A stretch of DNA of 64,000 nucleotides from Halococcus salsus (lineage in GTDB: Archaea; Halobacteriota; Halobacteria; Halobacteriales; Halococcaceae): NCBI RefSeq assembly GCF_009900715.1, contig NZ_JAAAJC010000001.1, positions 919,216-983,215 of the forward strand, read 5' to 3'. The translations under genes were made by a program, and so were the position numbers. The number at the start of each line of letters is the position of its first letter. Position 1 is the stretch's first letter. Positions 11,402 through 18,330 of the stretch are shown here, in pieces. A model generated the notes under the pieces. The model was not told the DNA's origin. It ran no database searches and saw only the letters and a program-made list of their open reading frames with translations.

Positions 11402-12658
11402 TCAGTCGCTTTCCGAACGGGACTCGGTTCCCGATGGCGGGACGGACGGCTTTCCGACTCCAGCATCGTCCGATCCACCGGCGAACACCACCGCGAGGAT
11501 CACGACGAGTTCGTTCGCCGCGCCGACGAGCGCGAGGTACTGGATGGCGGGGAGCGACACCGACTCGACGCTGCCGGCGAGCGAGGGAAGCACCACGAGC
11601 GCGCCCCCGACGCCTGCGAGCCCCGCCAGCGCCGCGAAGCCACAGAACGCGAGCCGCAGCCGGCGCGAGAGGTGGTCGATGGCGAGCAGCGCGGTCGGGA
11701 TCACGACCGGGAAGGCGATGAACAGCACCCGGGTGATGTTGCGCGCGATGAGGGGCTGAAGGAACGCGAGCGGCACGACGGCGATGCCGGCGGCGAGGAA
11801 CGCGGTTCGGCGGTCCACGGACCGCTCGCGAACGACTTTCGGCAGCGTGAGGAGCCCCCACAGCGCCGCGAGCACCCAGAGCGTGCCGAAGGCGCTGTAG
11901 ACCTCGTAGGGGATGTAGAAGACGCTCATCGCGAACTTGTCGAGCTGCGCGCCGACCCCGCGAGCGACGATCGCGCTCAGGGTGTCGCCCGAGAAGCCGT
12001 AGAACACCCGCAAGCCGAGGTACATCACGCCGGCGGGTATCGCCGCGGCGACGGGGCGGACCACACCACGAATCCCCCGTCGTTGGAGGCAGTAGAGCCC
12101 GTAGATCGGGAGGGCGAACAGCACGCTCTCCTTGGTGGCGACGCCGAGCGCGAGGAGGAGGGCGAAGACCACCAGTCGATCCCGATAGGCCGCCCAGAAC
12201 ACGCAGGCCAGCATGAACATCGTCACGCCGTCGACCAGCACGAGGTTGGTCGAGAGGTAGGCGACCGCGGGCGAGACCACGAACAGCGCGAGGCCGAAGC
12301 CCGCCCGTCGAACCCCGAACCCGAGGTCGCGGAGGTAGGAGTAGACGACGACCCCGCTCGCGGCCAGCGCGGAGACGTTGACGACCGCGAACCCGACGAG
12401 TCGGGAGGTCGGGAGCAGCCACGCGAGGACCGGCGTCACCACGCGATAGCGGAACGGTGCGGAGGGCACGTCCGCCGCGTCGAACGGAGCGCGTGCGATC
12501 TGGAAGTACTTCGGCGCGTCGCCGGCTCGCACGACGAGAAGCGGATCGACGAACAACGACGCGCCGGCCACCACGAGCCCGACGAGCAGCGTGCTCGTGA
12601 GGATGGCGGCGGGGAGTTCGTGATCGCGCCACGCGTCGGCGATCGGGTTGGAGCTCAT
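11402..12658 (-). CDS. Polytopic GT-C-like membrane protein
   Basis: A 418-residue protein with about eleven hydrophobic segments and a short acidic, Ser-rich tail. The first extracellular loop after helix 1 contains AGDAPKYFQIARAPFDAADV and PFRYRVVTPVLAWLL; an acidic residue in this loop is what GT-C glycosyltransferases use as catalytic base. Clear family motifs are otherwise absent, so glycosyl transfer is an inference. The neighbours (sugar epimerase 22 bases upstream in the same direction, polyprenyl pentose transferase, flippase-like protein) support a role in building or moving a surface glycan. Confidence 0.7.
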   Translation of the reverse strand: MSSNPIADAWRDHELPAAILTSTLLVGLVVAGASLFVDPLLVVRAGDAPKYFQIARAPFDAADVPSAPFRYRVVTPVLAWLLPTSRLVGFAVVNVSALAASGVVVYSYLRDLGFGVRRAGFGLALFVVSPAVAYLSTNLVLVDGVTMFMLACVFWAAYRDRLVVFALLLALGVATKESVLFALPIYGLYCLQRRGIRGVVRPVAAAIPAGVMYLGLRVFYGFSGDTLSAIVARGVGAQLDKFAMSVFYIPYEVYSAFGTLWVLAALWGLLTLPKVVRERSVDRRTAFLAAGIAVVPLAFLQPLIARNITRVLFIAFPVVIPTALLAIDHLSRRLRLAFCGFAALAGLAGVGGALVVLPSLAGSVESVSLPAIQYLALVGAANELVVILAVVFAGGSDDAGVGKPSVPPSGTESRSESD

Positions 12659-12680
12659 CGGTGACGCGCCACGAGCGGCG

Positions 12681-13775
12681 TTAGATGCGTTTGAAGACGC
12701 CCTTCACCAGCGTGAGCGCGCCCTGGTCCCAGGCGACCCGGTGGTCCAACCCCGTGCCGTCGGTCTCGGGATCGTCGTAGTTGTCGAGGTACCACTCGTA
12801 GGTCTCGACGAGCGCCTCCTTGTTGGAGTAGCGGGGTTCCCAACCGAGCGATTTCAGCTTCTCGACGGAGACGTAGGAGTCCTCGTGGGCGGTCTCGTAG
12901 ACCCAGGGGTAGAGCGGCGAGAGGTTGAGCTTGTCGAGCGTACGGAGCGCGAACACCGTGAGCGGGGTCGGGGTGCCCACGGTGCGCTTGCCGGTGCCCG
13001 CGTAGTCGATCGGGGCCTGGAAGTCCTCCTTCATCGTGCCGAACTCCTCGGCACCCACGTTGAACGTGGTGTTGACCTCGTCCTCGTCCTTCGCGAACAT
13101 GAACTCCATCGCGCGCACGAGGTCGTAGACGTGCATCAGCTGGTACTTGTTGTTGCCCCAGCCGACCATCGGGACGTTCGCGCCGGACTCGATCCAGTCG
13201 AACAGCACTTGAAAGACGCCGAGGCGCTTCGGGCCGATGAACGTCTTCGGTCGGAGGATCGGAACGCACATGCCCTGTCGACGGAAGTCGCGACAGATCT
13301 GCTCGGCCTCGATCTTGGCCTCGCCGTAGGGACCAACGCCGTCGAGCGGGGATTCTTCGGTTATCGGGTGGTGGTCGTGGGTGCCGTAGACCGCGGTCGA
13401 GGAGATGTAGACCACACGGTTGACGCCCGCGTCCTTGGCGGCCCAGAGGACGTTACGAGTACCGTTGATAGTGGTGTCGCGGATGCGCTCGTCGTCCCAG
13501 AGCGGGAGCGCCGCGGCGGTGTGGACGACCGAGTCCGCGCCCGACTCCTCGAGCGCGGCGGCGATGGACTCCTCGTCGCGGACGTCGCCCTCGATGAAGT
13601 CGACGCCATCGATCTCGTCCTCGGGTTTGAAGGGTTTGAGGTCGAGCGCCACGACGTCCCAGCCGCGTTCCTTGAAGTATTCGCAGGTGTGAAGCCCGAG
13701 GAATCCGGTGCCGCCGGTGACGAGCAGCGTTCCGGGCTCGGTGAGCCGTTCGTCCGCTTGCTGTTGTGCCTGCAT
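12681..13775 (-). CDS. NAD-dependent sugar epimerase/dehydratase (extended SDR)
   Basis: This 364-residue extended short-chain dehydrogenase has the Rossmann motif TGGTGFLG (residues 20-27), a conserved VVHTAAALPLW segment, and the catalytic triad in SSTAVYG and the YGEAKIEAE helix (Tyr-x3-Lys). Such enzymes act on nucleotide sugars or on prenyl-linked sugars. The start at 13775 follows a minus-strand GATAGTTCAAA promoter element about 28 bases upstream. It diverges from the decaprenyl-phosphate phosphoribosyltransferase-like gene, so a keto-sugar epimerase in the same pentose pathway is a reasonable inference; a plain NDP-sugar epimerase is the alternative. Confidence 0.85.
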   Translation of the reverse strand: MQAQQQADERLTEPGTLLVTGGTGFLGLHTCEYFKERGWDVVALDLKPFKPEDEIDGVDFIEGDVRDEESIAAALEESGADSVVHTAAALPLWDDERIRDTTINGTRNVLWAAKDAGVNRVVYISSTAVYGTHDHHPITEESPLDGVGPYGEAKIEAEQICRDFRRQGMCVPILRPKTFIGPKRLGVFQVLFDWIESGANVPMVGWGNNKYQLMHVYDLVRAMEFMFAKDEDEVNTTFNVGAEEFGTMKEDFQAPIDYAGTGKRTVGTPTPLTVFALRTLDKLNLSPLYPWVYETAHEDSYVSVEKLKSLGWEPRYSNKEALVETYEWYLDNYDDPETDGTGLDHRVAWDQGALTLVKGVFKRI

Positions 13776-13910
13776 TGCCCCGTGATTCACGATGGGGTTT
13801 GAACTATCTACCGATACGGTCGCGTTTCGACGCCGGAGCTTGGCGATAAAACGTGCTGAAACGTGTCCCGGACGCCGGGAACGAAGCGGAACGGTCCGCA
13901 CCGATCGGCC

Positions 13911-13918
13911 GTTTTATG
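13911..13918 (+). promoter_or_regulatory. TATA-like box of the UbiA/DPPR synthase operon
   Basis: GTTTTATG lies about 30 bases before the ATG at 13944 and fits a leaderless start for the three-gene operon that follows. Confidence 0.5.
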
Positions 13919-13943
13919 GGACCCCATCCCGCAGAAGGGTGCA

Positions 13944-14864
13944 ATGGGCGAGGCGCAGACACAGCGGAGCAGCATCGTCGACACGGCCGTCGGTCTCGCC
14001 TACGAGATCCGCCCGTGGCAGTGGTACAAACAGTCGGTCCTCCTCATCGGGATCGTCTTCTCGCGGGAGCTGTTCAACCCCGCGGCGTGGAGCCAGGTCA
14101 TCCTCGGCGTGCTGGCCTTCTGTGCGATCGCCGGTGCGACCTACATCTTCAACGACATCAGCGACGTCGAGGCCGACCGCAAACACCCCACGAAGCGCAA
14201 CCGGCCGATCGCCTCCGGCCAGGTGAGCGTCGCGACCGCGGGCGCGTTCGCGGTCGCGCTGCTTGTCGGCGGGTTCGTGTTGTCGTACGCCCTCGGACGG
14301 CTGTTCCTTATCGTCGTCCTGACGTACATTGCACAGAACGTGCTCTACTCGCTCTACCTCAAGGACGTCGTGCTGGTCGACGTGATGCTGATCGCGATCG
14401 GGTTCGTGCTCCGGGCGGTGGCGGGCGTGGTCGCCATCGGCGTGGCGCTCAGCCCCTGGCTCGTGGTCTGTACGTTCCTCGCCGCGCTCCTCCTCGCGAT
14501 CGGCAAGCGCCGCAACGAGTTCGAGGCCAGCGACCTGCCCGGCGAGACCCGGGCGACCCTCGAGGAGTACACCCCCGAGACCCTCGACCAGCTCCTCGGG
14601 ATCGTGACCTCCACCCTCCTGATATCCTACTCCATCTACACCTTCACCGGCGCGAAGCTCGCGATGATGCTCACGCTCCCGTTCGCCTTCTTCGGGGTCT
14701 TCCGGTATCACCACCTGGTTCACACCACCGACTCCGGCGTCTCGCCGGAGGTACTCCTGATCGACCGTCAGTTCATCCTCAACCTCGCGCTCTGGGGGCT
14801 GATCGCGGTGATAGTGCTCTACGGCCGCCCCCGGGCCTGGCTGATCGGGGCCGGGGTGGTCTGA
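13944..14864 (+). CDS. Decaprenyl-phosphate phosphoribosyltransferase-like UbiA protein
   Basis: The 306-residue membrane enzyme is a UbiA-superfamily prenyltransferase with about nine helices. The first aspartate motif reads NDISDVEADRKHPTKR (Asn70, Asp71, Asp74, Asp78), and the second region YSLYLKDVVLVDVMLIA is followed by LLAIGKRRNEFE. These stretches are those of the mycobacterial Rv3806c group, which joins phosphoribosyl pyrophosphate to a polyprenyl phosphate to start the arabinose donor pathway. Quinone- and archaeol-synthesising UbiA proteins have different motifs. It begins an operon with a PHP protein (1-base overlap) and a flippase-like protein. Reaction specificity in this organism is inferred from the family. 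Confidence 0.85.
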   Translation: MGEAQTQRSSIVDTAVGLAYEIRPWQWYKQSVLLIGIVFSRELFNPAAWSQVILGVLAFCAIAGATYIFNDISDVEADRKHPTKRNRPIASGQVSVATAGAFAVALLVGGFVLSYALGRLFLIVVLTYIAQNVLYSLYLKDVVLVDVMLIAIGFVLRAVAGVVAIGVALSPWLVVCTFLAALLLAIGKRRNEFEASDLPGETRATLEEYTPETLDQLLGIVTSTLLISYSIYTFTGAKLAMMLTLPFAFFGVFRYHHLVHTTDSGVSPEVLLIDRQFILNLALWGLIAVIVLYGRPRAWLIGAGVV

Positions 14865-15511
14865 TGAAGCGCTACGACCTCCAGGTTCACACCGACGCCT
14901 CGCCGTGTTCGGCGACCCCGCCCGAGGAAGTGGCTGCGGCCGCGGCGGACGCGGGTCTCGACGGGATCGTGGTGACCGACCACGACACCCTCGCGAACGT
15001 CGACCGGGTTCGTGCGGCGGCTCCCGAGGGGTTGGACGTGATTCCGGGCGTCGAGGTCACCACGACACAGGGGCACCTCTTGGGGATCGACGTCGCCGAA
15101 GCGCCACCGCAGACGGAGCCGCTGACAGTCGTGGACCGGATCCACGACCAGGGCGGGCTCGCGGTGCTCTCGCACCCGTTCGATTCGCTCCGGCAGTACT
15201 ACGACCGCGACCTCGACGACCTCGCGGCGGCCGTCGACGGGGTCGAGGTCGAGAACTCGCGGTGTGTTCGGGAATCGTTCAACCGGCAGGCGCGCGCGTA
15301 CGCGACCCACCACGGACTGGCGATGACGGGCGGGAGCGACGGCCACTTCCCACGGGAGGTCGGGCGGGCGTACACGGCGGTCGAGGGGTCGCTCGTGGAC
15401 GCGATCCGCGAGGGCTCGACCACGCCGCGTGGGCGCGGTCGGTACGCATCGGGCCACGTTCTCACGAAGGTCCAGCAGGCGCGACGGCTGATCGGGGGCG
15501 CGACGCCGTGA
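14864..15511 (+). CDS. PHP-domain metal-dependent phosphoesterase
   Basis: A 215-residue polymerase-and-histidinol-phosphatase (PHP) domain protein. Metal ligands are visible in LQVHTDASPCS (residues 6-16), VVTDHDT, IPGVEVTT, VLSHPFD and GGSDGHF, so the trinuclear site appears complete. The reaction is likely removal of a phosphate group. Its ATG overlaps the stop of the phosphoribosyltransferase gene by one base. The family contains no known enzyme for this step, but the position suggests it could remove the 5-phosphate from a polyprenyl-phosphoribose intermediate. A related PHP protein occurs at 33776-34483. Confidence 0.87.
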   Translation: MKRYDLQVHTDASPCSATPPEEVAAAAADAGLDGIVVTDHDTLANVDRVRAAAPEGLDVIPGVEVTTTQGHLLGIDVAEAPPQTEPLTVVDRIHDQGGLAVLSHPFDSLRQYYDRDLDDLAAAVDGVEVENSRCVRESFNRQARAYATHHGLAMTGGSDGHFPREVGRAYTAVEGSLVDAIREGSTTPRGRGRYASGHVLTKVQQARRLIGGATP

Positions 15512-16533
15512 GCGGCCTCCCCGACGAGGGTCGGCCGGGCGGAGACCCGACGGGCGAGCCGGACGGGCTCACCGGCCGTGTTCGGCGGGTGGTGAGCGAG
15601 CACGGGATCTGGGTGACGGCGGTGCTCACGGTCGTGGTGTTCGCGGCGCTGTTCGCCTTCGGCGACGCCAACCAAGTCGCGAACGCGCTCGCACAGTTCG
15701 ATATGCGGGCGTTCGCGGTCGTGATCGCGCTCACGACGGTCGGCTATCTCGTCCGGTTCGTGAAGTGGGAGCTCTACCTCGACGAACTCGACATCGACGT
15801 ACCCCGGACGACGAGCCTCACGGTGTTCTTCAGCGGGTTGATGATGGTCGTCACGCCGGGGAAGGCGGGCGAGGTCTGGAAGGCGTGGCTCCTGCGCGAC
15901 ATGGAGGACGTCCCGGCGAGCAAGACTACCCCCGTCGTCGGGGCCGAGCGGATCACCGACGTGGTCTCGCTCGCGGTGCTCGCGTCGGTCGGCGTGGTGG
16001 CCTACGGCCGTTCGCCCGCGATCCTCGCGGCGGTCGTGCTGGCCTTCCTCGCCGGACTGGGGTTGCTCCAGTGGCGTGCGGGCTGTCTGCGGCTCCTCTC
16101 GTGGGCCGAAGGCCTGCCGGTCGTCGGCGAGTACGCCGACGAGTTCGAGACGTTCTACGAGAGCACCTACGTCCTCTTCCGATTCCGGCCGCTGGCGCTG
16201 GCGACGCTCCTCAGTGTCGTCGCGTGGGCGCTCGAAGGGATCGCGCTCTGGATCACCCTCGACGGGTTCGGGGTCGAGGTCTCGGTTCTCGCCGCGGTGT
16301 TCGTCTTCGCGCTCGGGTCGGTGATCGGCGCGGTGAGCCTCCTCCCGGGCGGTCTCGGTGCGGCCGAAGCCAGCATGACCGGGCTCCTGCTCACGTTCTC
16401 GGTCGCGGAGCCGATCGCCGTCGCCGCGACCCTGGTGGTCCGGGTCGGGACGCTCTGGTACGCCGCCGTCCTCGGGTTCGCCGTCTTCACCGTTCACAAG
16501 CTCCTGGGTGGGGAACCGAACCCCGAGGCGTGA
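15508..16533 (+). CDS. Flippase-like membrane protein (UPF0104 / LPG synthase TM domain)
   Basis: The 341-residue protein starts at a GTG overlapping the PHP gene by 4 bases. After an acidic N-terminal stretch come about eight membrane helices. The family motifs LMMVVTPGKAGEVWKAWLL, GAERITDVVSL and GAVSLLPGGLGAAEASMTGLL are those of the lysylphosphatidylglycerol synthase transmembrane region/UPF0104 group, which in haloarchaea includes the N-terminal part of AglD. Such proteins are thought to move or present lipid-linked sugars. With the two upstream genes it makes a three-gene operon for a lipid-linked sugar. Confidence 0.85.
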   Translation: MSGLPDEGRPGGDPTGEPDGLTGRVRRVVSEHGIWVTAVLTVVVFAALFAFGDANQVANALAQFDMRAFAVVIALTTVGYLVRFVKWELYLDELDIDVPRTTSLTVFFSGLMMVVTPGKAGEVWKAWLLRDMEDVPASKTTPVVGAERITDVVSLAVLASVGVVAYGRSPAILAAVVLAFLAGLGLLQWRAGCLRLLSWAEGLPVVGEYADEFETFYESTYVLFRFRPLALATLLSVVAWALEGIALWITLDGFGVEVSVLAAVFVFALGSVIGAVSLLPGGLGAAEASMTGLLLTFSVAEPIAVAATLVVRVGTLWYAAVLGFAVFTVHKLLGGEPNPEA

Positions 16534-16656
16534 CCGGATAGCGCGGAGCGGACACCCGATCTGTTTCGCACGGCCGAGGCATTTCGTACGGTCGGAGCGG
16601 TTGGCGCGCGCTCGCGACCGGTCCGAACGATAGTGAGGGCCGGTCGTGGACACTGT

Positions 16657-16889
16657 GCGAGGGATGAGCACCGGAGTGAGCGACTAACGGGAGCGAACGA
16701 GGAGCGCAGTCGGCTGGGGAGGCGTGTGGCTGTCGCGGGACGGTGGGGTGCGGAGATGCAAGTTGTTGCACCGCGAGCGAGTGAAACGAGCGAGCGGGCC
16801 AAGGAACCTCCGAAGGAGGTGACGCAGGCTTTTGATCCACATTTTGCCAGGGAGCGAACGAAGTGAGCGACCGCAGCAAAAGGTGGGGG
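16657..16889 (+). repeat. Dispersed structured repeat, copy A (full length)
   Basis: About 233 bases beginning GTGCGAGGGATGAGCACC-like and ending GCAAAAGGTGGGGG, lying between two convergent genes. The 31 bases at 16827-16857 are identical to 56990-57020 on the other strand, and flanking blocks also match copy B. The first 80 bases match copy C at 25331-25411. Internal stem-loops are visible, for example ACCTCC-GAA-GGAGGT and TGCAA-GTTG-TTGCA. Any protein read through it is probably spurious. Bases 16534-16656 hold nothing else that I recognise. Confidence 0.8.
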
Positions 16890-16893
16890 CGTT

Positions 16894-18330
16894 TTACCAC
16901 CAATAGTCGCCGATCAGCTGCATGAAGAGCGCCTGGCCGAACACGGCGGCCGCGAGGATCGCCCGCCGGCGGGTCGTGGGGTCGGCGGCCCGGACCGCGG
17001 CGGCGACGGGAACGAGCAGGAACGGGTAGACGAACAGCGCGCCGCGGGCGGTCTCGCCGGTGTGGTAGACGCTCCCGAGGAAGAGGCCACCGAGCGAGAG
17101 CACCGCGCCGCCGAACAGGAGCAGGGGCTCGCGGTCCACCCGACCGCCGGCGCGGGCGCTCCGCCGGAGGACGCGTACGCCGCGGATCGCGAGCACGCAG
17201 AGGAAGGGGGTGAAGAAGAGCGCGATCTCGGCGACGTTCTCGATTCGGCTGTAGAGGTAGCGGAGCGGCGAGACGAACAGCAGGAACCCCTCGGTGTTCT
17301 GCTGGTCGGACGCCAGCGAGAACGAGTGGAGGTAATCGAAGCCGAAGCCAACCGCGAGGAGGGCGTAGGCGGCCACGAGACCGACGAGGACCACGGCGAA
17401 CGGGAGCCACTTCTCGCGGCGGGCGAGCGCGAGCACGCCGAGCACCGGGAGGATGAACACGAACGTGAAGGTCTGGGTGGAGGCGACGAACACGCAGACG
17501 AGCGTGCCGAGGGCGGCGACGACGGGTGAGTCCCTGGTGAAGCAGTAGACCGCCGCGAGCATCACGACCGTGATCATCGCATCGAGGCTGGTGAGGGTGT
17601 AGATCTGGACCGCGGGAAGCAGGACGAACAGGAAGGTGGTGTAATTCGCGACCGACGCGGGGTAGTAGGTCCGGAGGAGCCGTGAGAGCAGGAGGGCGGC
17701 GAGCGCGAGCGAACCGAGACCGACGACGAGCGAGACCCAGAGCGCCGAGGGGAGTATCGTATCGAGGACGTAGAAGGTGAGCACCGCACCCGGAGGGTGT
17801 GTCTGTGCGTGGAGGGGTAGCGAGAGCTGCTGGGCTTCGAAGGTTTCGAGGAACCGGACCGGGTCCGCGACGTCGATCGCGGCGAGGTAGTAGCCCCCAG
17901 GATCGAGGATGTCGATCGCCGCGCGCTCGTAGTTGCCGGGGGCCGAGAGCGGTCTGAGGATCCCCGGGCCGACGCCGTGGGTCAGGGTGGTGAGCACGAG
18001 CAGCGCCCCGCCGGCGACGACTATCGGGAGGAGGGTGCGGTGGTCGGTCCGGAGGAGCACGACCACGGCGACGGCGAAGACGACGAGCGCGAGCGCGGCG
18101 AAGACCGCCGCGTCGGGCAGCGGGAGGCGCGTCACCCGAAGCGCGAACTTGCTGATCGGCCAGTATCGCGGGATCGGCACGTTCTGTGCGTCGAGAAGTT
18201 GGCGGTCGAACAGCTTGATGACCAGGTTACAGAAGACGACCGAGGTCAGCGTCACCCAGCCGAGCCCGAGCACCGCACGCACCGAGAGCAGTCCGTCCGA
18301 TCGGCGTGCGGCGTCGGTCCCGGCGGCCAT
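16894..18330 (-). CDS. Polytopic GT-C-like membrane protein with HPPG motif
   Basis: A 478-residue protein with about twelve hydrophobic segments. A large loop near residues 125-180 contains LSLPLHAQTHPPGAVL; a His-Pro-Pro motif after a loop of this kind is common in bacterial GT-C sugar transferases that use polyprenyl-linked donors. Conserved aspartates for catalysis cannot be fixed by eye. The gene converges on the phosphoribosyltransferase operon across repeat copy A. A role as the transferase that uses the lipid-linked pentose is an inference from family look and neighbourhood. The protein ends GDYWW. Confidence 0.72.
   Translation of the reverse strand: MAAGTDAARRSDGLLSVRAVLGLGWVTLTSVVFCNLVIKLFDRQLLDAQNVPIPRYWPISKFALRVTRLPLPDAAVFAALALVVFAVAVVVLLRTDHRTLLPIVVAGGALLVLTTLTHGVGPGILRPLSAPGNYERAAIDILDPGGYYLAAIDVADPVRFLETFEAQQLSLPLHAQTHPPGAVLTFYVLDTILPSALWVSLVVGLGSLALAALLLSRLLRTYYPASVANYTTFLFVLLPAVQIYTLTSLDAMITVVMLAAVYCFTRDSPVVAALGTLVCVFVASTQTFTFVFILPVLGVLALARREKWLPFAVVLVGLVAAYALLAVGFGFDYLHSFSLASDQQNTEGFLLFVSPLRYLYSRIENVAEIALFFTPFLCVLAIRGVRVLRRSARAGGRVDREPLLLFGGAVLSLGGLFLGSVYHTGETARGALFVYPFLLVPVAAAVRAADPTTRRRAILAAAVFGQALFMQLIGDYWW

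What the first reader, a model, noticed from the sequence alone, without database searches (positions are those of the whole stretch)
11402..18330. Candidate polyprenyl-phosphate pentose pathway for surface glycans
The UbiA protein at 13944 carries the motifs of the Rv3806c type that makes decaprenylphosphoryl-phosphoribose. Around it are a PHP phosphoesterase and a flippase-like protein in the same operon, a divergent NAD-dependent epimerase, and two GT-C-like membrane proteins, one with an HPPG motif. Together these could make, dephosphorylate, epimerise, flip and transfer a lipid-linked pentose, an archaeal parallel to the mycobacterial arabinose route.
Basis: inference. Interest (0 to 1): 0.62.

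Follow-up and report, generated by a model that had tools for sequence, protein, structure and literature searches.

The report
Archaeal lipid-linked pentose sugar pathway
A salt-loving archaeon carries a compact, movable set of genes that most likely builds a five-carbon sugar on a membrane lipid, flips it outwards and attaches it to the cell surface, a scheme worked out in bacteria but apparently not yet described in archaea.

Summary
Four form a real module: SDR epimerase, divergent from a UbiA-PHP-flippase operon. UbiA-PHP adjacency held in 30 of 30 other haloarchaeal loci, the flippase in 29 of 30. Over the same 293 genomes of the order, all 27 with the epimerase also have the UbiA. The UbiA keeps 13 of 15 mapped substrate-site residues of M. 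tuberculosis Rv3806c. One relative replaces PHP plus flippase with a HAD phosphatase-GtrA fusion beside the same UbiA, epimerase and GT-C. GTC2 (the HPPG protein) models as GT-C; GTC1 stays unresolved. The closest known system is the bacterial three-component pentofuranose pathway (PMC11127046). The module is patchy, and sits on haloarchaeal plasmids and in a published prophage region. In methanogens and bacteria a DUF362 gene appears where the SDR is missing and never with it, suggesting a second, unrelated epimerase. No enzyme here has been assayed. Verdict: new variant of a known kind.

The parts
11402..12658 (-). GTC1, 418 aa multi-TM protein directly downstream of the epimerase; possible GT-C glycosyltransferase, unproven
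   Evidence: weak NCBIfam NF046093 43.8 bits against cut-off 150; found in 3 of 293 order genomes; model pLDDT 36. In 11 of 30 other loci the gene in the same place is a PMT_2 or Mannosyl_trans4 GT-C.
12681..13775 (-). Extended SDR epimerase (EPIM), proposed polyprenyl-phosphoryl-pentose epimerase
   Evidence: PF01370 162 bits; TGxxGxxG and YxxxK kept in at least 25 of 27 aligned rows; 27 of 27 genomes with it also have the UbiA.
13776..13943 (.). Divergent intergenic region between epimerase and UbiA operon (168 bp)
   Evidence: divergent arrangement in 24 of 30 other haloarchaeal loci.
13944..14864 (+). UbiA-family polyprenyl-phosphate phosphoribosyltransferase (PPPRS-like), proposed dolichyl-P + PRPP reaction
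   Evidence: NCBIfam NF008977 232.2 bits; PDB 8j8j Rv3806c E 1.2e-27; 13 of 15 mapped substrate-site residues identical.
14864..15511 (+). PHP phosphoesterase, proposed 5'-phosphatase of polyprenyl-phosphoribose
   Evidence: PF13263 55.7 and PF02811 39.5 bits; adjacent to UbiA in 30 of 30 loci; residues H9, H40, E64, H104, D159, H161 kept, first metal His is Gln.
15508..16533 (+). LPG_synthase_TM / TIGR00374 flippase-like membrane protein, proposed flippase of the lipid-linked pentose (GTG start uncertain)
   Evidence: PF03706 144.5 bits, TIGR00374 100.8 bits against 43.2; 29 of 30 loci.
16894..18330 (-). GTC2, GT-C fold glycosyltransferase with HPPG motif, proposed final pentosyltransferase
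   Evidence: AlphaFold2 pLDDT 73.3, pTM 0.82; all first 49 VIA rows are GT-C-fold proteins, Z 22.7 to 11.0, then 7.3; HPPG in 18 of 18 homologues; a homologue (33% identity) lies inside the UbiA-PHP-flippase operon of L125.

Best explanation
The locus encodes an archaeal polyprenyl-phosphate pentofuranose pathway. [quoted passage not shown] (2) PHP removes the 5'-phosphate; (3) the NAD-dependent SDR inverts one hydroxyl of the lipid-linked ribofuranose, most likely C3, giving xylofuranose, less likely C2, giving arabinofuranose; (4) the LPG_synthase_TM protein flips the lipid-sugar; (5) a GT-C enzyme, in this genus GTC2, adds the pentose to a surface glycan or glycoprotein. Shown here: gene order, conservation, co-occurrence, UbiA active-site residues, GT-C fold of a GTC2 model, replacement of parts by functional equivalents. 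Inferred: every chemical step, the direction of flipping, the epimer and the acceptor. The 0.75 is for steps 1, 2, 4 and 5 with some epimerisation; I give xylofuranose about 0.45 and arabinofuranose about 0.3.
For: UbiA: 13 of 15 mapped Rv3806c substrate-site residues identical, including R22, K28, Y70, N73, D77, K87, R90, K143, K191; the six UbiA paralogues of the genome lack the combination (roles from passages of PMC10994848; D74, D81 and H84 are motif positions I added). Linkage: UbiA-PHP 30 of 30 loci, flippase 29 of 30, epimerase 25 of 30. Co-occurrence in the same 293 genomes: 27 with both UbiA and epimerase, 2 with UbiA only, 0 with epimerase only, 264 with neither, Fisher p 3.8e-36; by genus 11/1/0/75, p 4e-13, neither corrected for ancestry. 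Three of four genomes lacking the epimerase at the locus carry it on another contig. UbiA-PHP-flippase also in 4 of the 7 phylum loci fetched outside the order (the others: one 3.6 kb contig with UbiA-flippase, L084, and one broken UbiA) and in a Dehalococcoidia bin with the epimerase (L129). Replacement: L084 has UbiA, HAD phosphatase fused to GtrA, an epimerase 54% identical, and a PMT_2 GT-C. Epimerase neighbours in 11 of 30 loci are GT-C families PF15971 or PF13231. GTC2 models as GT-C. Annotated plasmids show the same set. Precedent with biochemistry: PMC11127046.
Against: No substrate, product or localisation was tested. UbiA falls 1.8 bits short of the curated NCBIfam cut-off, and two of 15 site residues differ (Q135N, Y157F; Y157 is Phe in some mycobacteria). 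The haloarchaeal PHP has Gln for the first metal His in 29 of 31 rows and Pro where 2yb1 has Asp, so its metal site is altered and phosphatase activity is not assured. Foldseek E-values for GTC2 are weak (best 1.9e-3) and residues 1-92 are barely tested. GTC1 is unresolved. One UbiA-PHP locus (L066) has no flippase hit and only a distant SDR (31% identity over 213 residues; its HMM score is inflated because it was in the profile). One genome (G017, 77% complete) has UbiA without the epimerase. No pentose in a Halococcus envelope was found in the papers looked at; the target glycan is unknown.
Confidence: 0.75

Rival explanations
1. Same pathway, but the product is arabinofuranose (C2 inversion), a true archaeal parallel to the mycobacterial arabinose route, with the SDR doing alone what DprE1 and DprE2 do together.
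For: UbiA is closest among solved proteins to Rv3806c; the GTC2 model also matches AftA, AftB and Emb arabinosyltransferases (Z 12-16); an extended SDR that inverts C2 exists (CDP-tyvelose-2-epimerase 1orr among the PDB hits).
Against: No ALO-domain protein in the genome, while the control C. glutamicum rings; in published systems a single SDR gives xylofuranose and arabinose systems carry DprE1/E2 homologues (PMC11127046). ALG12, OST and ArnT fit the GTC2 model better than the arabinosyltransferases do.
Confidence: 0.3
2. The UbiA protein is an ordinary prenyltransferase (lipid, quinone or other acceptor) and the neighbours serve something else.
For: UbiA families act on many acceptors; the score is just under the curated cut-off; no assay exists.
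Against: PRPP-site residues absent from the six paralogous UbiA proteins are kept and invariant in 16 diverse homologues; phosphatase, epimerase, flippase and GT-C linkage is not expected for quinone or lipid synthesis.
Confidence: 0.08
3. The module serves dolichyl-phosphate mannose or another hexose: the GT-C beside the epimerase is annotated DolP-mannose mannosyltransferase in several genera.
For: PF15971 Mannosyl_trans4 next to the epimerase in L052, L053 and close relatives; plasmid annotations say DolP-mannose mannosyltransferase.
Against: In Haloferax the dolichyl-phosphate mannose is made by AglD (PMC5744192 passages), not by a PRPP-type UbiA; GT-C family names do not fix the donor; the UbiA-PHP pair is the constant part.
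Confidence: 0.07
4. No epimerisation of the lipid-linked ribose: the SDR makes a nucleotide sugar of the same glycan and the module delivers plain ribofuranose.
For: SDR substrates cannot be told from sequence (its best NCBIfam hits are all far below cut-off); some UbiA-PHP-flippase loci lack both SDR and DUF362 (4 of 26), and deletion of the SDR in Citrobacter leaves ribose addition intact.
Against: SDR presence tracks UbiA almost one to one over 293 genomes, unlike what a general nucleotide-sugar enzyme would do.
Confidence: 0.15

Closest known systems
Bacterial three-component pentofuranose system of Citrobacter youngae O1/O2 (ORF15 PPPRS, ORF14 MATE flippase, ORF12 GT136, ORF13 SDR epimerase; PMC11127046)
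   Same: UbiA-type PRPP-dependent synthase, a 5'-phosphatase, a single SDR epimerase with TGxxGxxG and YxxxK, a flippase candidate and a GT-C enzyme in one cluster; widespread and diverse (a phage-borne example is mentioned there).
   Different: Archaeal; PHP instead of a HAD domain; LPG_synthase_TM instead of MATE; GT-C families vary by genus and membership of GT136 was not tested; polyprenyl carrier presumably dolichyl phosphate.
Mycobacterial decaprenylphosphoryl-arabinose pathway (Rv3806c, Rv3807c, DprE1/DprE2, Rv3789, Emb/Aft)
   Same: Homologous synthase with the same PRPP-site residues; same order of logic; GT-C final step.
   Different: No ALO-domain DprE1 in the genome, single SDR; PHP rather than the Rv3807c phosphatase; different flippase family.
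Haloferax volcanii AglD/AglR/AglS dolichyl-phosphate mannose branch of N-glycosylation (PMC5744192, passages)
   Same: Archaeal lipid-monophosphate sugar, flipped and transferred outside by a membrane enzyme; PF15971 (DolP-mannose mannosyltransferase) proteins, the family that I recall AglS to belong to, sit in this module in other genera.
   Different: Sugar added to the lipid by AglD, a hexose, no UbiA or PHP.
[quoted passage not shown]
   Same: Published gene list holds PHP, decaprenyl-phosphate phosphoribosyltransferase and NAD-dependent epimerase close together, with hypothetical genes of 978 and 1299 bp in the flippase and GT-C positions.
   Different: Listed only as BLAST best hits of a prophage region; in the part read (section 16, part 1 of 2) no function or pathway is proposed.

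Membership tests
Polyprenyl/decaprenyl-phosphate phosphoribosyltransferase (Rv3806c type) | UbiA-family profile and homology | tested here: met
   PF01040 95.5 bits against cut-off 34.2; PDB 8j8j E 1.2e-27.
Polyprenyl/decaprenyl-phosphate phosphoribosyltransferase (Rv3806c type) | Score above the curated NCBIfam equivalog cut-off | tested here: not met
   NF008977 232.2 of 234; NF008978 205 of 207; NF008976 140.4 of 474. A naming threshold missed by about 2 bits, so the claim is 'works like', not 'is an NCBIfam member'.
Polyprenyl/decaprenyl-phosphate phosphoribosyltransferase (Rv3806c type) | PRPP and lipid-phosphate binding residues | tested here: met
   13 of 15 identical; Q135 is Asn, Y157 is Phe; residues from PMC10994848 passages, plus three motif positions I added.
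[quoted passage not shown]
   Needs an assay.
Three-component pentofuranose system (PMC11127046) | PPPRS with phosphatase function encoded together | tested here: inconclusive
   PHP adjacent in 30 of 30 loci, HAD-GtrA fusion in L084; PHP activity untested and metal ligands altered.
Three-component pentofuranose system (PMC11127046) | MATE-family flippase | tested here: not met
   The flippase candidate is PF03706/TIGR00374.
Three-component pentofuranose system (PMC11127046) | GT-C glycosyltransferase | tested here: met
   GTC2 model: first 49 VIA rows all GT-C-fold proteins, Z 22.7-11.0. Fold only.
Three-component pentofuranose system (PMC11127046) | GT136 family membership of the GT-C | not tested
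   No GT136 sequence was fetched.
Three-component pentofuranose system (PMC11127046) | SDR epimerase with TGxxGxxG and YxxxK | tested here: met
   Kept in 25-26 of 27 rows, one row a fragment.
Mycobacterial DPA pathway | DprE1 (FAD oxidase with ALO domain) | tested here: not met
   No PF04030 match in the genome at E 0.001 (95% complete); C. glutamicum control rings.
Mycobacterial DPA pathway | Arabinofuranose as product | not testable with these tools
   Needs glycan chemistry.
PHP phosphoesterase | PHP profile over curated cut-off | tested here: met
   PF02811 39.5 against 26.4; PF13263 55.7 against 21.3.
PHP phosphoesterase | Complete canonical metal ligand set | tested here: inconclusive
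   H9, H40, E64, H104, D159, H161 kept; first His is Gln in 29 of 31 haloarchaeal rows (His in 22 of 22 others); column 71 is His where others have Glu/Asp. Which residues are ligands is recalled from the family.
LPG_synthase_TM / TIGR00374 flippase-like | Profile over curated cut-off | tested here: met
   144.5 against 33.4 and 100.8 against 43.2 bits.

The most novel reading that the evidence does not exclude
Archaea of several classes, and some bacteria, make lipid-linked pentofuranoses by one PRPP route with two unrelated epimerases: an SDR in haloarchaea and DUF362 in methanogens and other lineages, DUF362 being a member of the lactate-racemase (LarA, DUF2088) clan acting on a lipid-linked sugar. 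The whole cassette travels on plasmids and proviruses and changes the cell surface, as phage-borne O-antigen modification does in bacteria.
Probability: 0.28. Interest if true: 0.78.

Novelty: new variant of a known kind. Interest (0 to 1): 0.6.

Why it matters
It would extend PRPP-derived lipid-linked pentofuranose chemistry to archaea, with a phosphatase and a flippase unlike those of the described systems, explain how archaea put pentoses on surface glycans, and give a marker (UbiA next to PHP) for finding such glycans in genomes. The exclusive pattern of SDR and DUF362 gives a concrete, testable function for a family of unknown function. The plasmid and provirus copies suggest the cassette is used to change the surface seen by viruses.

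Tried and rejected
GTC1 structure: model with 3 sequences failed (pLDDT 36); profile-profile comparison with the Mannosyl_trans4 group gave probability 4%, GTC2 with the same group 0.1%, PDB profile search with GTC1 nothing of note. So GTC1 is left open.

Nickel-pincer cofactor genes as a sign for DUF362 as a LarA-like enzyme: PF01969 (LarC) and TIGR00268 (taken as LarE from recall) hit 14 of 14 genomes chosen, 5 of the DUF362 or flippase-only kind and 9 with the SDR, so they do not discriminate. A DUF362 profile found no related solved structure.

Neighbourhood of the second GTC2 copy in the genome (G000:C1:36843-38210, L192): no glycan genes recognised by eye. Viral contigs: one weak UbiA relative only (28% identity); phage records: one unannotated 6.6 kb record. 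Literature on pentose in Halococcus walls: not found (listings; passages). Searches that did not turn up a description of an archaeal pathway of this kind: (listings). Most subscription papers are not held, so this is not proof of absence.

Tree of UbiA: 101 rows, made of 13 of 30 unnamed haloarchaeal loci, 5 of 7 phylum loci, the 80 named loci, Rv3806c and 2 of 6 paralogues. PHP-linked rows cluster (6 changes against 33.1 in shuffles) but are not one clade, the bootstrap had not settled, and Rv3806c is a long branch of unsure place. The mirror-tree correlations (Spearman 0.66-0.82) are not corrected for species relatedness.

Thresholds were mine: UbiA E 1e-20, epimerase E 1e-60, flanking epimerase 300 bits. 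At E 1e-30 PHP relatives occur in 175 of 293 genomes; the clean pattern (28 of 29 UbiA genomes, plus G167) appears only when the close group (57% identity or more) is taken by eye, dropping the rest; G268, with UbiA, falls outside that group at 43%.


Full report
WHAT IS THERE. The window lies at G000:C1:919216-983215. The six ORFs of the finding are at the stated places. UbiA, PHP and the flippase-like gene overlap at their ends and form an operon; the epimerase is divergent across 168 bp.

UbiA. Its best family models are decaprenyl-phosphate phosphoribosyltransferases, 232.2 bits for NF008977 against a cut-off of 234, and its best solved relative is Rv3806c, 8j8j (E 1.2e-27). PMC10994848 (passages) names the residues that bind PRPP and decaprenyl phosphate. 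Of the 15 positions I mapped, 13 are identical; Q135 is Asn and Y157 is Phe. Three of the 15 (D74, D81, H84) are motif positions that I added and that do not come from those passages. The six other UbiA proteins of the genome do not share the set (R22 and K28 could not be compared there because the fragments start later). In 16 diverse homologues most of these positions are invariant.

THE MODULE. In the order, 29 of 293 genomes have this UbiA. I fetched 30 loci from the 28 genomes other than the window's own. UbiA-PHP adjacency: 30 of 30; flippase next: 29 of 30; epimerase at the locus: 25 of 30, 24 divergent and one inside the operon. In genus g3 (4 loci) the epimerase is not at the locus, but three of the four genomes have it on another contig and the fourth is 77% complete. 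The epimerase is in 27 of the same 293 genomes, all of them with UbiA. Other neighbour families reach at most 8 of 30 loci (crude gene calling). One genome, G167, has PHP and flippase with only a 31-residue remnant of UbiA and no epimerase: a decayed copy. In G268 all four genes are divergent together, compared with a genome of the same genus.

THE FINAL ENZYME. GTC2 was modelled from 18 homologues (pLDDT 73.3, pTM 0.82). Foldseek's best hits are ArnT, AftA, OST and Emb proteins but with weak E-values (1.9e-3 at best); the structural aligner puts GT-C-fold proteins in all of the first 49 rows (Z 22.7 to 11.0, some of them non-catalytic subunits of the GPI transamidase, whose GT-C fold I recall) and 7.3 for row 50. 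Residues 1-92 are barely tested. GTC2 is confined to one genus, 9 of 293 genomes, two copies each. A homologue (33% identity) lies between UbiA and PHP in the archaeal contig L125. In other haloarchaeal genera the gene next to the epimerase is another GT-C: PF15971 in L052 and L053 and, by similarity of 60% or more, in L051, L054, L055, L057, L058, L059; PMT_2 in L034, L061 and, by similarity, L063. GTC1 has this position in the window but remains unidentified.

REPLACEMENTS THAT TELL FUNCTION. In L084, a genome of the same phylum, UbiA is followed by a HAD phosphatase fused to a GtrA-type membrane domain, then an epimerase 54% identical to the window's, then a PMT_2 GT-C. PHP and flippase are thus replaced by a different phosphatase and a different flippase family while UbiA, epimerase and GT-C stay. 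This is the strongest argument for the roles of PHP and the LPG_synthase_TM protein. PHP carries a warning: the first metal His is Gln in 29 of 31 haloarchaeal rows while column 71 has His where the others have Glu/Asp; the 22 non-haloarchaeal rows keep the first His.

KNOWN SYSTEMS. PMC11127046 (read: sections 7, 9, 11, 12 and passages) describes the same scheme in bacteria with biochemistry: UbiA-type PPPRS with a HAD phosphatase domain, SDR epimerase ORF13 (ribo- to xylofuranose), MATE flippase and GT-C of family GT136. [quoted passage not shown] a word search gave a single 'archaea' occurrence in its text, and the one I saw is in a reference title. So the scheme is known; the archaeal version with PHP and LPG_synthase_TM is a variant. 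Since the single-SDR precedent makes xylofuranose, since the arabinose systems there carry DprE1/E2, and since no ALO domain was found in this genome, xylofuranose is my first guess; neither was tested. Pentose on an archaeal glycan has precedent: the Pyrococcus furiosus N-glycan carries two xyloses (PMC4476749 passages); whether that species has the module was not tested.

MOBILITY. The module lies on plasmids of Haloterrigena sp. KLK7, Halostagnicola larsenii XH-48 and Natronococcus sp. CG52, with annotations naming UbiA, PHP, LPG synthase TM protein, epimerase/oxidoreductase and a DolP-mannose mannosyltransferase; a UbiA hit on a fourth, unannotated plasmid (Natronococcus sp. AD-5) was not looked at further. 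Sulfotransferase genes are near in two of the three. PMC4866403 lists PHP, phosphoribosyltransferase and epimerase close together in a prophage region of Halanaeroarchaeum (Table 10). This fits the patchy presence.

BEYOND HALOARCHAEA. Over 85 loci (5 of the phylum search and the 80 named ones, 9 of them haloarchaeal; many contigs are short), 26 have PHP and flippase near UbiA, 30 have a DUF362 gene within 6 kb on the same strand, 10 have the epimerase, and none has both DUF362 and epimerase. Of the 26, 15 have DUF362, 7 the epimerase, 4 neither (Fisher p 5e-4, not corrected for ancestry; 6 of the 7 are haloarchaea). The sister Chloroflexota rows L129 (epimerase) and L135 (DUF362) are a useful contrast. 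DUF362 shares a Pfam clan with the lactate racemase family DUF2088 (PMC11770544 passages). Hence the bold reading that DUF362 is a second, unrelated epimerase. Cofactor genes did not help to decide, and the window's genome has no DUF362.

VERDICT. Observation confirmed; interpretation right in outline, too specific on arabinose and on all six genes. New variant of a known kind; interest 0.6.

Noticed in passing
L080-L083, L093, L094, L097-L103, L106, L108, L125, L135, L138, L144, L146 and others: DUF362 (PF04015) gene on the same strand within 6 kb of UbiA in 30 of 85 loci, never together with the SDR epimerase (10 of 85); possible unrelated epimerase.
   Followed up: partly
L084:8911-9939: HAD phosphatase fused to a GtrA-type membrane domain beside UbiA, an EPIM homologue and a PMT_2 GT-C.
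   Followed up: yes
L203, L204, L205; Halanaeroarchaeum prophage 2 (PMC4866403): The module sits on haloarchaeal plasmids and in a published prophage region; sulfotransferase genes lie near in two of three plasmid loci.
   Followed up: partly
L193:6457-8182: Decayed module: PHP and flippase intact, UbiA reduced to a 31-residue remnant, GT4, GT2 and sulfatase-like genes nearby (named by eye).
   Followed up: partly
L062:6851-7907: Epimerase broken by stops in one of two module copies of genome G217; the other copy (L060) reads through.
   Followed up: no
window:14882-15076 (PHP residues 7 and 71): Haloarchaeal PHP proteins differ at two metal-site positions (Gln for His, His for Glu/Asp) from the 22 other PHP proteins of the module.
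   Followed up: partly
L192:6841-8241 (G000:C1:36843-38210): Second GTC2 copy in every one of the 9 genomes with GTC2, outside the module and without recognised glycan genes around it in the window's genome.
   Followed up: partly
L124, L129, L135: UbiA of a Bacteroidales bin and two Chloroflexota bins group within the archaeal PHP-linked UbiA proteins, suggesting transfer between domains or mis-binned contigs.
   Followed up: no
window:60903-61331: Another UbiA-family gene in the same window, without the PRPP-site residues.
   Followed up: no
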